Part shown: positions 30,051 through 35,680 of the stretch, one piece after another | Layout: every line of letters begins with the position of its first letter | How positions within the stretch are numbered: the stretch's first letter is position 1 | Assembly (NCBI GenBank): GCA_947476065.1 | Contig: CANJPG010000014.1 | Span: 1-59,228, forward strand | Direction of reading: 5' to 3' | Source: Fidelibacterota bacterium | GTDB lineage: Bacteria > Pseudomonadota > Alphaproteobacteria > Rhodospirillales > Rhodospirillaceae | Length of the DNA: 59,228 nt | Notes under the pieces: model-generated | Seen by the model: only the letters and a program-made list of their open reading frames with translations | Told to the model about the DNA's origin: nothing | Databases searched by the model: none | Program-made: the position numbers and the translations under genes

Positions 30051-32123
30051 ATGTCAGAGCTTCTCCTCGAAATCTTCTCTGAAGAAATCCCCGCCCGCAT
30101 GCAAAAGCAGGCGGCTGCGGACCTCGCCCGCCTTGTGGGCGATGCGCTCAAGAGCAACGGCATCGAAGCCAAGACGCTGGAAACCGCCGTCGGCCCACGC
30201 CGCTTGGTGCTGGCCGCGACCGGCCTGCCCGAGGCCCAGCCCGATACCACAGAAGAACGCAAAGGGCCGCAAGTTGGCGCGCCCGATCAGGCCATCCAGG
30301 GCTTTTTGAAAGCCGCCGGATTGAGCAGTCTCGACCAGGCCGAAAAGCGCGACATGCCCAAGGGCGTGTTCTATTTCGCCGTCAGCAAAAAGCCCGGCCG
30401 TCCCACCGCCGACGTGGTGAAGGATATTGTCGAGACCGCCATGGCGCAGCTGCCGTGGCCAAAGTCCATGCGCTGGGCCAGCAACCCCACGCGTTGGGTG
30501 CGTCCGTTGCATGGGATCATTTGCGTGCTCGACGGTAAGGTCGTGCCGGTGCAGTTCGGCGGCATCACCGCCGCCGCCACGACGCGCGGGCATCGTTTCT
30601 TGGCACCCGGTTTCATCGCGGTGAAAAACTTCGCCGACTACAAAGTCAAGCTGGCTAAGGCCTACGTTCTGGTCGATCCCGCCGAGCGCAGCGCCATCAT
30701 CACATCGACGCTGGCCAAACTGGCCGCCGCCGAAGGCCTGACAGTGAAGGACGATCCGGGTCTGGTCGCCGAAGTCACCGGCCTGGTCGAATGGCCCGTG
30801 CCGCTGCTCGGCACCATCGACGCCCAGTACATGGACGTGCCCGCCGAAGTGCTCACCTCGGCCATGCGCAAGCACCAGAAGTATTTCGCCCTGACCACCA
30901 AGGACGGCAAGCTCTCCAATCGTTTCGGCGTCGTCGCCAACATGGCCACCGCCGATAAGGGCAAGGCGATCATCGCCGGCAACGAGAAAGTGCTGCGCCC
31001 GCGCCTGTCCGACGCCAAGTTCTTCTGGGACCAGGACAAGAAGAAGTCGCTTGAAAGCCGCGTGCCCAAGCTGGACGAGCGCGTGTTCCAGGCCAAGCTC
31101 GGCACTGTGCGCGCCAAAGTCGACCGTATCGTGGCCTTGGCCGCCTTCCTCGCCAAGCCCGTCGGCGCCGATGTCGAAGCCGCGCGCCAGGCAGCCCTGT
31201 TGTGCAAGGCCGATCTGTCGACCGAAATGGTCGGCGAATTTCCCGACCTACAGGGCATCATGGGCCGCTACTACGCGCTGCATGACAATGAAACGGCGGA
31301 CGTCGCAACGGCCATCGCCGAGCATTATTCGCCGCTGGGCCCCGCGGACTCCTGTCCGTCTGCCCCTGTCAGCATCGCGGTCTCGCTCGCCGACAAAATC
31401 GACAGCCTGATGGGCTTCTTCGCCATCAACGAAAAGCCCACGGGTTCGAAAGATCCTTACGCGCTTCGTCGCGCAGCACTTGGCATCATCCGCATCATTC
31501 TCGAGAATAAGCTGCGCCTCCCGCTGCTGCCGGCTTTCGAATATGCCCTCGGCAGTTATGATGGCCTGGTGACGGACATCAACCGCGAGAAGATCGCCAT
31601 CGAAGTCCTCGACTTCTTCGCCGACCGCCTCAAAGCGTACTTGCGCGACAAGGGCGTGCGTCACGATCTGGTCACGGCTGTGTTTGCCCTGGGCAACGAA
31701 GACGACCTCGTGCGTCTGATGGCGCGGGTTGAGGCGCTGTCCGATTTCGTGAAAAGCGATGACGGCGCAAACCTGCTGGCCGCACAGCGCCGCGCGACCA
31801 ATATCGTCCGTGCCGAAGCCAAGAGCGGCACCACATTGTTGGTCGGCGACATCATCACCGCCGATCTGGGGGCGCCGGAGGCCGAAGCGCTGTACACGGC
31901 CACCATGGCGGTCGAAGCCACCGCCGACGCGGCGCTGGTGACCGAAGACTTCAGTGCCGCCATGGGCGCTTTGGCCACCTTACGTAAGCCCGTCGATTCG
32001 TTTTTCGACAAGGTGAAAGTGAACGCCGACGATCCAGCCCAGCGTACGGCCCGCCTGAGACTGCTGGCGCGCATCGATCGGGCCATCAACAAGGTCGCCG
32101 ATTTCTCCAAAATCGAAGGCTAA
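30051..32123 (+). CDS. glyS: glycine--tRNA ligase beta subunit
   Basis: Beta subunit of 690 residues, needed for tRNA-Gly recognition. It begins [20 protein letters not shown], the expected N-terminus, continues with [20 protein letters not shown], the HD-like region ([55 protein letters not shown]) and the C-terminal anticodon-binding domain. Residue count and order match other members. It starts five bases after glyQ and is co-transcribed with it. A weak hairpin follows; the next gene lies 148 bases away. Confidence 0.95.
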
Positions 32124-32171: not shown

Positions 32172-32231
32172 CACACGCAACTTTTGCCCGAATTGGGGGT
32201 TGTAAGCATATATTTTTCCGCCTATTCAAGA

Positions 32232-32272
32232 TGACCTTACATCACATCCCCTGCAAAGGTGAGCTTACATCA
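32232..32272 (+). promoter_or_regulatory. paired 13-bp direct repeats over the ppdK start codon
   Basis: Two copies of TGASCTTACATCA (S = C or G) lie at 32232-32244 and 32260-32272, 28 bases apart start to start. The second copy contains the A of the ATG start. The ribosome binding site AAAGGTGAG (32255-32263) runs into the second copy. An inverted copy of the core (TGTAAGC, 32201-32207) lies further upstream. Binding here by a repressor, perhaps the fused helix-turn-helix of PpdK itself, would block both RNA polymerase passage and ribosome access. Confidence 0.5.
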
Positions 32273-35187
32273 TGCGCGACAATGCCCTTGAGCGAGCCAT
32301 CACGGAAGCCGGCGGCACTGCGGCCCTGGCCCGCACCATTAATGTAACGCCCCAGGCCATCAGTCAGTGGGACCGGGTGCCCGCCGAGCGGGCCGTGGCG
32401 GTGGAACAGGCTACCGGCGGCAAGGTCACTCGCCAGGAACTCCGTCCGGATCTTTACCCCTCCGACGCTGCCCCGGGCAGCAAAGCCCTATCCCCGGCCG
32501 CCGATGGCAAATGGGTCTACACCTTTGGCGCCGGCAAGGCCGAGGGCGCAGCCTCTATGAAGAACCTGTTGGGCGGCAAGGGCGCCAACCTCGCGGAAAT
32601 GAGCGCCATCGGCGTTTCGGTCCCGCCGGGCTTCACCATCAGCACCGACGTCTGCACCTACTATTACGCCAACGGCAAACAATACCCGGCCAACCTCAAA
32701 GCCCAGGTCGAGCAGGGTATCGCCAATATCGAGAATCACATCGGCGCCAAATTCGGCGACGTGAATAATCCGCTGCTGGTGTCGGTGCGCTCGGGTGCCC
32801 GCGCCTCCATGCCCGGGATGATGGATACGATTTTGAATCTCGGCCTGACCGATGCCACCGTCGAGGGCCTGGCCCGGCAGTCGGGCGACGCGCGTTTTGC
32901 CTACGACAGCTACCGCCGCTTCATCCAGATGTATTCCAGCGTCGTCCTCAACATGGACCACTACGACTTCGAGCAACTGCTCGATCTCGCCAAGGAGGAC
33001 CGCGGCATTACAATGGACACGCAGCTGACGGCGGCTGACCTGAAAGCCCTCGTGGAAAGCTACAAGAAGCGTATCGAAGAGGAACTCGGCGCGCCCTTTC
33101 CGCAAGATGTGCACGAGCAGCTGTGGGGCGCCGTCGGCGCCGTCTTCGGCAGCTGGATGAACACCCGCGCCATCACCTATCGCAAGCTGCACGAAATCCC
33201 CGACGCCTGGGGCACCGCCGTTAACGTGCAGTCGATGGTCTTCGGCAACATGGGCGAGGACTGTGCGACTGGCGTGTGTTTCTCACGCGACCCCTCCACC
33301 GGCGCCAATGTGTTCTACGGCGAATATCTGGTGAACGCCCAAGGCGAGGACGTCGTCGCCGGCATCCGCACGCCCCAGCAGATCACGATTCAAGGCAAGG
33401 ACGCCCAGGGCTCCAAGCTGCCGGCCATGGAAGAAAGCATGCCCGCGCTGTTCAAGGAGCTTGTGGACACGCGCAACCGCCTCGAGAAGCACTACGCGGA
33501 CATGCAGGATATGGAGTTCACCATCCAGAAGGGCAAGCTCTGGATGCTGCAGACCCGCAACGGCAAACGCACCGCCCAGGCCGGCTTCAAGATCGCCGTC
33601 GATATGGCCAGCGAAGGGTTGATTTCGGAAGAAGAGGCCGTGCGCCGCATCGATCCCGCACAGCTGGATCAGCTGCTGCACCCGATGCTTGATCCGAAAG
33701 CGCCGCGCCAGTTGCTGTCGCGCGGGTTGCCCGCATCACCGGGTGCCGCTTCGGGCAAAATCGTCTTTACCGCTGAAGATGCGGAAGACTGGGTCCGCCG
33801 CGGCGAGAAGGTCATCCTCGTGCGCCGCGAGACCAGCCCCGAGGACATCGGCGGCATGCATGTCTCCCAGGGCATCCTCACCACGCGCGGCGGCATGACC
33901 AGCCACGCGGCGGTCGTCGCGCGCGGTATGGGCACGCCCTGCGTCTGCGGCGCCGGCGACATCAACGTCGACGCCAAGGCCAAGACCGCCCGCGTGCGCG
34001 ACAAGATCCTGCTCGAAGGCGATATCATCACTCTCGACGGCGCCACCGGAGAAGTGTTCCTGGGCAAGGTCGCCACCATTCGGCCCGCGCTGACCGGCGA
34101 TTTCGCCACGCTGATGGGTTGGGTCGATAAGATCCGCCGTCTCAGGGTCCGCGCCAACGCCGAAACGCCGTTGGATGCCGAGACCGCGCGCAAGTTCGGC
34201 GCCGAGGGGATTGGCTTGTGCCGCACCGAGCACATGTTCTTCGATCCGGCACGCATCCTGACCATGCGCCAGATGATCCTGGCCAAGGACACCGGCGGCC
34301 GCAAAGCCGCGCTCGACAAGCTGCTGCCCTTCCAGCGCGGCGACTTCATCAAGCTGTTCACCATCATGGACGGCCTGCCGGTCACGATCCGTCTGCTCGA
34401 TCCGCCGCTGCACGAGTTCCTGCCCCACACCGATGCCGAGATCAAAGAAGTCGCCGAAGGTGCGTCGGTTTCGGAAGAGTCGGTGCGCGAGGCGCTGGTC
34501 CGGCTTCACGAAAGCAATCCCATGCTAGGCCATCGCGGCGTGCGCCTGGGTGTCTCGCATCCCGAAATCTACGAGATGCAGGCTAGAGCCATCTTCGAGG
34601 CCGCCGTTGCCGTCGCCAAGCAGGGCAAAAAAGTCATCCCGGAAGTGATGATCCCGCTGGTGGGCAATCGTCTTGAACTCGACATGATGAAAAAGGTCGT
34701 CGATGTCGTGGCCCAAGAGGTCTTTGCCGCTGCCGGCGTCACGATTGAATATATGGTCGGCACCATGATCGAGCTGCCGCGTGCGGCCGTGCAGGCGGGC
34801 GACATCGCCACCACTGCCGAGTTCTTCTCTTTCGGCACCAACGACCTGACGCAGATGACGCTCGGGTTGTCGCGTGACGACTGCGCCAACCTGATCGAGA
34901 TTTACAAACAGAAGGGCATTTTCGAAAAAGACCCCTTCGCCAGCCTCGATCAGGATGGCGTCGGGCAGTTCATTCTCATGGCGGCCGAACGCGGCCGTGC
35001 CGTGCGCAAAAACCTCAAGCTGGGTGTTTGCGGCGAGCACGGCGGCGATCCGGACTCTATAGCCTTCTTCCACCGCGCCGGGCTGGATTACGTATCCTGT
35101 TCGCCCTACCGTGTGCCTGTCGCCCGCCTCGCCGCCGCCCAGGCCGCGCTGGCGGAGAAGGGCGGCAAGGCCCAGAGCCTGAATTAG
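32272..35187 (+). CDS. ppdK: pyruvate phosphate dikinase fused to an N-terminal Cro/YdaS-like HTH domain
   Basis: Enzyme of 971 residues that interconverts pyruvate, ATP and phosphate with PEP, AMP and PPi. Residues 1-63 are a helix-turn-helix of the YdaS/Cro type: AITEAGGTAALARTINVTPQ, AISQWDRVPAERAVAVEQAT, ending RQELRPDLYP. After a 16-residue linker the dikinase begins at residue 80 (KWVYTFGAGKAEG) and is complete: ATP-grasp half, catalytic His545 in GGMTSHAAVVARG (with regulatory Thr543 before it), and Cys920 in GVCGEHGGDP. No ATG, GTG or TTG lies in frame between the two parts, so the enzyme cannot start alone. Normal bacterial PPDK is about 880-900 residues. tspO follows after ten bases. 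Confidence 0.93.
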   Translation: MRDNALERAITEAGGTAALARTINVTPQAISQWDRVPAERAVAVEQATGGKVTRQELRPDLYPSDAAPGSKALSPAADGKWVYTFGAGKAEGAASMKNLLGGKGANLAEMSAIGVSVPPGFTISTDVCTYYYANGKQYPANLKAQVEQGIANIENHIGAKFGDVNNPLLVSVRSGARASMPGMMDTILNLGLTDATVEGLARQSGDARFAYDSYRRFIQMYSSVVLNMDHYDFEQLLDLAKEDRGITMDTQLTAADLKALVESYKKRIEEELGAPFPQDVHEQLWGAVGAVFGSWMNTRAITYRKLHEIPDAWGTAVNVQSMVFGNMGEDCATGVCFSRDPSTGANVFYGEYLVNAQGEDVVAGIRTPQQITIQGKDAQGSKLPAMEESMPALFKELVDTRNRLEKHYADMQDMEFTIQKGKLWMLQTRNGKRTAQAGFKIAVDMASEGLISEEEAVRRIDPAQLDQLLHPMLDPKAPRQLLSRGLPASPGAASGKIVFTAEDAEDWVRRGEKVILVRRETSPEDIGGMHVSQGILTTRGGMTSHAAVVARGMGTPCVCGAGDINVDAKAKTARVRDKILLEGDIITLDGATGEVFLGKVATIRPALTGDFATLMGWVDKIRRLRVRANAETPLDAETARKFGAEGIGLCRTEHMFFDPARILTMRQMILAKDTGGRKAALDKLLPFQRGDFIKLFTIMDGLPVTIRLLDPPLHEFLPHTDAEIKEVAEGASVSEESVREALVRLHESNPMLGHRGVRLGVSHPEIYEMQARAIFEAAVAVAKQGKKVIPEVMIPLVGNRLELDMMKKVVDVVAQEVFAAAGVTIEYMVGTMIELPRAAVQAGDIATTAEFFSFGTNDLTQMTLGLSRDDCANLIEIYKQKGIFEKDPFASLDQDGVGQFILMAAERGRAVRKNLKLGVCGEHGGDPDSIAFFHRAGLDYVSCSPYRVPVARLAAAQAALAEKGGKAQSLN

Positions 35188-35197
35188 GACCATCCAA

Positions 35198-35680
35198 ATG
35201 AACCCGGCAATGCGCCGCAGTCTCGGCTTTTTTGTTTTGGCTGTTGCCAGCGTTGCCGCGGTTTCCGCGGCGGCTCAGCTGGCGACCTTTCCCAATCTGG
35301 CGCCGTGGTACGAAAGCCTCAACAAGCCCGCGTTCAATCCGCCGAACTGGATCTTCGGGCCGGTTTGGACGGCGCTTTATGTACTGATGGCCTTTGCAGT
35401 CTGGCGCATCTTTCGCCTGCCGCCGTCGCCTGAGCGCACCACTGCCATTGTGCTGTTCTATGCCCAGCTTCTGGTGAACGGCGCCTGGTCGTGGATGTTT
35501 TTCGGCGCCAACAACCCGCTGCTGGGCCTGGCCAACATCCTGCCCCAGCTGGTCGTGATCGTCGCGACCGCCGTAGCCTTCCGCCGGCTCGATCGCGTTG
35601 CCGGCTTCTGCCTGTTCCCGCTGATCGCCTGGGTGACCTTCGCCAGCCTGCTCAACTTTGAAATCTGGCGCCTGAATTAG
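35198..35680 (+). CDS. tspO: TspO/MBR family tryptophan-rich sensory protein
   Basis: Integral membrane protein of 160 residues with five predicted helices. Conserved family motifs are present: WYESLNKPAFNPPNWIFGPV, WTALYVLMAFAVW and the Trp/Asn-rich AQLLVNGAWSWMFFGANNPL. TspO binds porphyrins and related compounds and regulates tetrapyrrole or stress responses in Rhodobacter. It starts ten bases after ppdK, so it is probably translated from the same transcript; this pairing is unusual and may reflect shared stress control. Confidence 0.93.
   Translation: MNPAMRRSLGFFVLAVASVAAVSAAAQLATFPNLAPWYESLNKPAFNPPNWIFGPVWTALYVLMAFAVWRIFRLPPSPERTTAIVLFYAQLLVNGAWSWMFFGANNPLLGLANILPQLVVIVATAVAFRRLDRVAGFCLFPLIAWVTFASLLNFEIWRLN

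What the first reader, a model, noticed from the sequence alone, without database searches (positions are those of the whole stretch)
32272..32510. Pyruvate phosphate dikinase made as an obligatory fusion to a Cro/YdaS-like DNA-binding domain
Residues 1-63 read as a full YdaS/Cro helix-turn-helix (ALARTINVTPQAISQWDRV, ending RQELRPDLYP), joined by 16 residues to a complete PPDK that has every catalytic residue. There is no start codon between the two parts, so a separate enzyme cannot be made from an internal start. This would be a metabolic enzyme able to sit on DNA, possibly sensing PEP/pyruvate balance. I know of no described PPDK of this form, but cannot search.
Basis: partly seen in the sequence, partly recalled or inferred. 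Interest (0 to 1): 0.82.

Follow-up and report, generated by a model that had tools for sequence, protein, structure and literature searches.

The report
Enzyme with a phage repressor head
A core carbon-metabolism enzyme of uncultured bacteria carries at its front a DNA-binding domain of the phage Cro type, and its own promoter is full of what look like matching binding sites, so the enzyme most likely switches its own gene down.

Summary
Confirmed, and more than a curiosity. ORF 32272-35187 is one 971-aa protein: a phage-Cro-type (Pfam YdaS) domain, a 16-aa linker, a complete pyruvate phosphate dikinase (PPDK). The fusion is in 36 of 317 genomes of the order (8 genera, one family), with one origin in the PPDK tree. 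The Cro domain is under purifying selection like the enzyme; the linker is hypervariable. In the window's genome two spaced multi-site patterns occur once each, both here. Several (pro)phage cro genes have GTAAG-N5-CTTAC operators. Best reading: a captured phage Cro makes PPDK an autogenous, probably repressing, DNA-binding enzyme. Metabolite sensing is unsupported; the variable linker suggests simple level control. The pattern recurs: Cro domains head MurA, an NAD(P)H-hydrate repair enzyme, ketopantoate-reductase-like and RraA-like proteins, several with a palindrome in their own promoter; 8 of 10 places of the MurA palindrome in 99 genomes lie before the fused gene. Binding itself is untested.

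The parts
32272..32460 (+). Cro/YdaS-type HTH domain of the fused protein, residues 1-63
   Evidence: Pfam PF15943 E 2.4e-21, PF14549 E 1.7e-12; AF2 model of residues 1-68 pLDDT 88, best PDB match Xfaso1 Cro 3bd1, TM 0.80-0.82 by query length, rmsd 1.3-1.4
32461..32508 (+). linker, residues 64-79, hypervariable in relatives, no start codon here
32509..35187 (+). complete pyruvate phosphate dikinase, residues 80-971, and stop
   Evidence: invariant H545, C920, K103
32202..32206 (+). operator half-site GTAAG (in TTGTAAGCA)
   Evidence: in the alignment of 10 genus promoters invariant except the last base in one
32236..32240 (-). operator half-site CTTAC (in CCTTACAT), 34 bp from the first
   Evidence: invariant in 10 of 10
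32264..32268 (-). operator half-site CTTAC (in GCTTACAT), between the ribosome-binding sequence and the ATG
   Evidence: invariant in 10 of 10
32200..32228 (+). possible promoter TTGTAA - 17 bp - TATTCA overlapping the first half-site (read by eye; the consensus scan found none)
   Evidence: partly conserved block; negative
32255..32263 (+). ribosome-binding sequence AAAGGTGAG (read by eye)
31979..31988 (.). CTTACGTAAG palindrome inside the end of glyS; relevance unsure
   Evidence: positions -293 and -288
30051..32123 (+). glyS (named by recall of its sequence), upstream neighbour, 148 bp before the fused gene; in 19 of 24 unfused relatives where it was located ppdK starts within 25 bp of it

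Best explanation
One protein with two jobs: a normal PPDK that carries a captured phage Cro domain. The Cro domains of the PPDK (a homodimer in known PPDKs, recalled), tethered by floppy linkers, bind GTAAG/CTTAC half-sites that lie over the promoter, near the start of transcription and beside the start codon of the enzyme's own gene, and hold its transcription (perhaps also translation) down as enzyme accumulates. Shown: the fusion, its conservation and single origin, selection on the HTH, the half-site arrays, their tie to the fusion, and the same half-site in some phage cro promoters. Inferred: that this HTH binds these sites, and where the promoter lies. Inferred with less support: that the effect is repression, and that it is simple level control without a metabolite signal.
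For: HTH heading PPDK in 36 of 317 genomes, 8 genera, one family, and in 32 of 34 named loci, the other 2 cut by contig ends. Single branch, SH-aLRT 100, 33 fused against 26 unfused. HTH dN/dS 0.00-0.07 against 0.02-0.10 for PPDK, lower in 6 of 10 pairs (pairs share species). Half-sites: 110 in 23 fused promoters (135 bp each) against a shuffle mean of 7.8, sd 2.7, maximum 17 of 1000; 172 in 34 (140 bp); unfused: 0 in 6 x 300 bp, 3 in 20 x 135 bp, 0 in one more, G046. No 5-mer is commoner there. In the own genome GTAAG-CTTAC-CTTAC and WTGTAAG..CTTACAW each occur at one place, this promoter. It holds the only PF15943 match of the genome. A Cro-like gene (L157) divergent from a CI-like gene, and two like it in Asaia, have GTAAG-N5-CTTAC between them. 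ppdK lies apart from glyS in the fused clade.
Against: No binding or expression data exist. The genome-wide patterns are not rare: read backwards as a control they hit the own genome 5 times and once, so only their place is telling, and only 7 of 19 genus genomes have the second pattern at all. A cut locus outside the 34, L113, has 2 half-sites. In the fused promoters the spacing is irregular (15, 28, 34 bp and others), unlike the N5 palindrome of the phages. Phage Cros of higher identity (L180, L181; 63-65%) have only 1 site, and 37 of 46 stand-alone Cro loci with the same recognition-helix pattern have fewer than 3, so the helix alone does not set the site. The promoter scan was empty. Fusion and motif arose once in this family, so their tie inside the clade is not many independent events.
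Confidence: 0.8

Rival explanations
1. The half-sites belong to another regulator of the clade (a separate protein), and the HTH is for something else.
For: The fused promoters do not keep the phage N5 spacing; a co-inherited second regulator cannot be excluded by sequence alone.
Against: Sites are tied to the fusion (172 in 34 promoters against 3 in 26 unfused); some (pro)phage Cros of the same family have the same half-site; an independent Cro fusion (L242) has GTAAGCATAACTTAC in its own promoter; no other PF15943 match in the own genome.
Confidence: 0.1
2. The Cro domain senses metabolic state: PPDK domain swinging or ligand binding gates DNA binding (PutA-like trigger enzyme in the strict sense).
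For: Enzyme and DNA-binding domain are one chain; PutA and BirA are enzymes that repress their own operons (PMC6978683, passages; ligand control recalled).
Against: The linker is 12-35 residues, unconserved in sequence, so no conserved coupling is seen there; PF03618 (regulator of PPDK/PEP synthase, role recalled) is still present in the own genome and 54 of 61 genomes, though not found in fused genomes G005 and G026.
Confidence: 0.2
3. The HTH is an inert passenger left from a phage insertion.
For: None beyond the likely phage origin.
Against: HTH dN/dS 0.00-0.07, 30 of 62 columns invariant; half-sites kept while their spacing turns over.
Confidence: 0.03
4. DNA binding activates the promoter or sets DNA architecture instead of repressing.
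For: Sites reach back to about -125 in several genus members, upstream of a repressor's usual place.
Against: Cro proteins are repressors (PMC9986795, passages); in several genus members, the window included, a site also lies between the ribosome-binding sequence and the ATG.
Confidence: 0.12

Closest known systems
P22/Xfaso1-type Cro repressors (Pfam P22_Cro, YdaS_toxin)
   Same: Sequence, five-helix fold (3bd1, TM about 0.8), presumed sites in the own promoter; that P22 half-sites are of TNAAG type is recalled, not looked up
   Different: Here the domain heads a 970-residue enzyme; half-site spacing irregular; no phage gene among the neighbours looked at
PutA, BirA (PMC6978683, passages) and NadR (recalled): trigger enzymes
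   Same: Enzyme and own-gene DNA binder in one chain, presumed autogenous repression
   Different: Other enzymes and DNA-binding folds (recalled); here a phage-type Cro, found in one family of the order, no sign of ligand coupling
BzdR (HTH + shikimate kinase; PMC3602430, abstract read)
   Same: HTH joined by a linker to an enzyme fold
   Different: In BzdR the enzyme activity was lost; here the mapped catalytic residues are kept
Ordinary bacterial PPDK
   Same: Catalytic part complete, about 65-74% identical to unfused PPDKs of the order
   Different: In unfused relatives the protein starts near residue 79; 3 half-sites in 26 promoters; ppdK mostly follows glyS closely

Membership tests
Pyruvate phosphate dikinase | PPDK_N, mobile and PEP-binding domains in order, full length | tested here: met
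Pyruvate phosphate dikinase | catalytic His, Cys and ATP-site Lys | tested here: met
   H545, C920, K103 by the alignment; invariant (roles recalled; other residues not mapped)
Pyruvate phosphate dikinase | enzyme activity | not testable with these tools
   none
P22/Xfaso1 Cro (YdaS) repressors | sequence family | tested here: met
   PF15943 75.8 bits, PF14549 47.4 bits, cut-offs 30 and 30.2
P22/Xfaso1 Cro (YdaS) repressors | five-helix Cro fold | tested here: met
   predicted model, (pLDDT 88; 3bd1 first)
P22/Xfaso1 Cro (YdaS) repressors | binding sites in own promoter | tested here: inconclusive
   candidate sites clearly present; binding not tested
P22/Xfaso1 Cro (YdaS) repressors | dimer operator of fixed spacing | tested here: not met
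   irregular spacing in fused promoters
Trigger enzyme (autogenous enzyme-repressor) | active enzyme plus DNA-binding domain in one chain | tested here: inconclusive
   one chain shown; activity inferred from residues only
Trigger enzyme (autogenous enzyme-repressor) | represses own gene | not testable with these tools
   candidate sites only
Trigger enzyme (autogenous enzyme-repressor) | metabolite controls DNA binding | not testable with these tools
   variable linker argues against
YdaS 'toxin' of toxin-antitoxin systems | small toxin gene with a partner gene | tested here: not met
   not a small gene; neighbours are glyS and a 160-aa ORF at 35198; YdaS is called the Cro equivalent in PMC9986795 (passages)

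The most novel reading that the evidence does not exclude
Alphaproteobacteria have repeatedly welded phage-type Cro repressors onto metabolic and cell-wall enzymes as built-in autorepressors, each with its own operator in its own promoter: PPDK, MurA, the NAD(P)H-hydrate repair enzyme, a ketopantoate-reductase-like and an RraA-like enzyme.
Probability: 0.7. Interest if true: 0.88.

Novelty: new variant of a known kind. Interest (0 to 1): 0.8.

Why it matters
It would be a clear evolutionary route from phage switch to enzyme autoregulation, with the operator still legible, and a set of natural enzyme-repressor chimeras (PPDK, MurA and others) whose predicted DNA sites can be tested directly in vitro. 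It also warns that 'toxin YdaS' labels on such proteins mislead.

Tried and rejected
Frameshift, chimera or missed stop: rejected by 36 genomes. A separate internal start as a conserved device: start codons in the linker or HTH are scattered, the commonest (GTG36) being in 14 of 34; not excluded by experiment. Replacement of PF03618 regulation by the fusion: rejected for the family as a whole, PF03618 remains in most fused genomes. Other YdaS-PPDK fusions outside the family: in samples of 385 class and 398 phylum genomes no other matched open frame exceeds 588 aa; of 64 loci from genome contigs the 30 that are not of this type show no PPDK, one of them being cut after 90 aa. These searches follow known YdaS sequences and could miss other HTH types. 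G046, whose PPDK match began at query residue 51, was checked and is not fused and has 0 half-sites. Full-length AF2 model: mean pLDDT 61 on a shallow alignment, not used. The promoter scan found nothing at its threshold, so the promoter is my reading by eye. TorD/NarJ-type fusions: no common palindrome within 90 bp in the 8 looked at, two of which share one upstream sequence. The recognition-helix test on 64 stand-alone loci was weak: 9 of 46 against 0 of 18, Fisher p 0.05. Literature: searches listed no Cro-PPDK or Cro-MurA enzyme; only listings were seen, and only open-licence PMC papers are held.

Full report
Observation. The ORF at 32272-35187 (971 aa) is real and continuous. Residues 6-63 match Pfam YdaS_toxin (E 2.4e-21) and P22_Cro (E 1.7e-12); residues 98-958 carry the three PPDK domains. 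Alone, the N-terminus finds solved phage Cro proteins, Xfaso1 Cro (3bd1) first, E 9.1e-11. The rest aligns end to end with solved PPDKs from residue 79/80. In the 3.26-Mb genome it is the only full-length PPDK match and the only PF15943 match. An AF2 model of residues 1-68 built on 37 sequences has pLDDT 88 and five helices and matches Xfaso1 Cro best (TM 0.80-0.82 by query length). The full-length model was poor (pLDDT 61) and is not used.

Conservation. Among 61 genomes searched, the match starts at query residue 1-2 in 17 of 19 genus genomes (own included), is split over two contigs in G005 and is missing in G017 (76% complete), and starts at 1-2 in one genome of each of six other genera of the family (g2, g3, g5, g7, g9, g18); elsewhere a full match starts at about residue 66-80, apart from G046 (51), which I checked and found unfused. 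Over the order, 36 of 317 genomes have the domain at E 3.3e-35 or better, all in one family, 8 genera; 33 lie in open frames of 965-1041 aa, the other three (127, 549 and 73 aa) at contig ends. Among named records 34 loci are of this type, metagenome bins whose titles vary (14 say Rhodospirillaceae, 11 'Candidatus Marinimicrobia'); 32 read through into PPDK, 2 are cut by contig ends. Many of these are the same assemblies as the unnamed ones. In a PPDK tree of 59 rows, the 33 fused rows form one side of a branch, SH-aLRT 100. Ten close pairs give dN/dS 0.00-0.07 for the HTH and 0.02-0.10 for PPDK, the HTH lower in 6 of 10. HTH columns average 88% identity and the whole protein 85%, while the linker varies in sequence and from 12 to 35 residues.

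The promoter. This is the decisive addition. Upstream of the ATG lie GTAAG (32202), CTTAC (32236) and CTTAC (32264). In 23 fused promoters, 135 bp each, there are 110 such half-sites against 7.8 (sd 2.7, maximum 17) in 1000 dinucleotide shuffles; no 5-mer is commoner there, and the flanking consensus is ATGTAAGC. In 34 fused promoters there are 172, 3 to 8 in each; two further fused loci cut by contig ends have 2 (L113) and 6 (L117) in 135 bp. Unfused PPDK genes have 0 in 6 x 300 bp, 3 in 20 x 135 bp and 0 in one more. Two patterns, GTAAG-CTTAC-CTTAC and WTGTAAG..CTTACAW, each occur at one place in the own genome, this promoter. The control (pattern read backwards) occurs there 5 times and once, so number means little and place is what counts. 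Over 19 genus genomes, 22 of 30 listed matches of the first pattern and 9 of 11 places of the second lie at the ppdK promoter (matched by contig and position); the second pattern is absent from 12 of the 19. So the known target looks like one gene, but other arrangements of half-sites were not searched. In 10 genus promoters the three sites and parts of a block around CTTATTCAAG are conserved; I read TTGTAA-17-TATTCA as a promoter overlapping the first site, but the consensus scan did not call it. Among unfused relatives ppdK starts within 25 bp of glyS in 19 of 24 where glyS was found (26 tried; the other five gaps are 107-335 bp); in the fused clade the gap is 145 bp or more in 13 of 13 found (34 tried, 21 not found within 900 bp). 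A promoter with operators thus may have come in with the domain.

Origin. The highest-scoring stand-alone relative in the order search (G207, E 3.4e-25) is an 82-aa Cro divergent from a CI-like gene (read by eye), with GTAAG-CATAA-CTTAC between them and two more GTAAG-N5-CTTAC sites about 2 kb away. Two similar Asaia genes and viral contigs L191 and L212 have the same N5 operator. Of 64 stand-alone Cro loci 9 have at least 3 half-sites in 200 bp where 0.06 are expected. Against this, 37 of 46 with the same helix pattern do not, including L180, one of the closest by identity, so the site is not fixed by that helix alone.

How it works. Most likely the Cro domains on a PPDK dimer bind half-sites over the promoter and start region and repress their own gene. 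The N5 palindrome of the phages has given way to irregular spacing, as one would expect if dimerisation is now supplied by the enzyme through floppy linkers; that is inference. The variable linker argues for plain level control rather than metabolite sensing. The PF03618 regulator of PPDK/PEP synthase (role recalled) is still present in the own genome and in 54 of 61 genomes, missing among fused ones in G005 and G026, so the fusion mostly adds a layer.

The wider pattern. The class sample of 385 genomes has 20 PF15943 matches; 12 lie in open frames of 250 aa or more, and in the phylum sample of 398 genomes the ten such frames listed, the window's included, all lie in the same class. Pfam confirms further fusion partners: ketopantoate reductase (L236), RraA-like (L238), NAD(P)H-hydrate epimerase/dehydratase (L242) and an EPSP-synthase-family enzyme that I read as MurA (L243), besides a nitrate-reductase-delta/TorD-like chaperone (L127, L135). 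The L242 promoter carries GTAAGCATAACTTAC, the same letters as the G207 operator, preceded by AGTAAGCATAACTTGAC. Nine of 99 genomes of the MurA fusion's family have it, in 5 genera (partner read by eye except L243). All 8 of these with upstream DNA (the ninth is cut by a contig end) carry a TACTAA-N4-TTAGTA palindrome upstream. In the 99 genomes the palindrome occurs at 10 places; 8 are these promoters; the backward control occurs at 38 places in 25 genomes, so again the place is the evidence, not the number. Of the five ketopantoate-reductase-like fusions 3 have a perfect CCTACAA-N6-TTGTAGG-type palindrome and 2 do not; the RraA fusion has two TTACAC..GTGTAA-type repeats; the TorD-like ones show none in common. 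Apart from L236 the ketopantoate group was recognised by eye.

What is known. YdaS is described as the Cro equivalent of its prophage (PMC9986795, passages). Enzymes that repress their own genes are known, PutA and BirA among them (PMC6978683, passages), and BzdR shows an HTH on a former enzyme (PMC3602430, abstract). Searches for a PPDK or MurA of this kind listed none described, within open-licence papers only.

Verdict. Real, conserved and in all likelihood functional; a new variant of the enzyme-repressor kind, probably of phage origin, and one of several such captures. DNA binding and repression remain to be shown.

Noticed in passing
L275-L283; L243: MurA-like enzyme fused to a Cro/YdaS domain in 9 of 99 genomes of family f166, with a conserved TTACTAA..TTAGTAA palindrome upstream in the 8 that have upstream DNA; 8 of the 10 places of the palindrome in the 99 genomes lie there.
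   Followed up: partly
L242 (G332:C86:34200-36800): NAD(P)H-hydrate epimerase/dehydratase fused to a Cro/YdaS domain, with GTAAGCATAACTTAC upstream, as in the G207 phage-type operator. Only one genome of its family is held.
   Followed up: partly
L236, L237, L239, L240, L241 (family f26): Ketopantoate-reductase-like enzymes with an N-terminal Cro/YdaS domain; CCTACAA..TTGTAGG-type palindrome upstream in 3 of 5 (Pfam run on L236 only).
   Followed up: partly
L238 (G080:C199:9300-11600): RraA-like protein with a Cro/YdaS domain and two TTACAC..GTGTAA-type repeats upstream.
   Followed up: partly
L127, L128, L131-L148, L151, L154, L244, L245: Many proteins of about 250-300 aa, mostly from Rhizobiales-type records, join a Cro/YdaS domain to what looks like a nitrate-reductase-delta/TorD-like chaperone (Pfam run on L127 and L135 only); no common operator seen.
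   Followed up: partly
L125: The fused PPDK of this genome has a very long branch (0.82) and odd composition in the tree.
   Followed up: no
L007-L009 upstream, about -126 to -93: In these genus members an inverted repeat that may be the glyS terminator has a GTAAG and a CTTAC half-site at its two feet.
   Followed up: no
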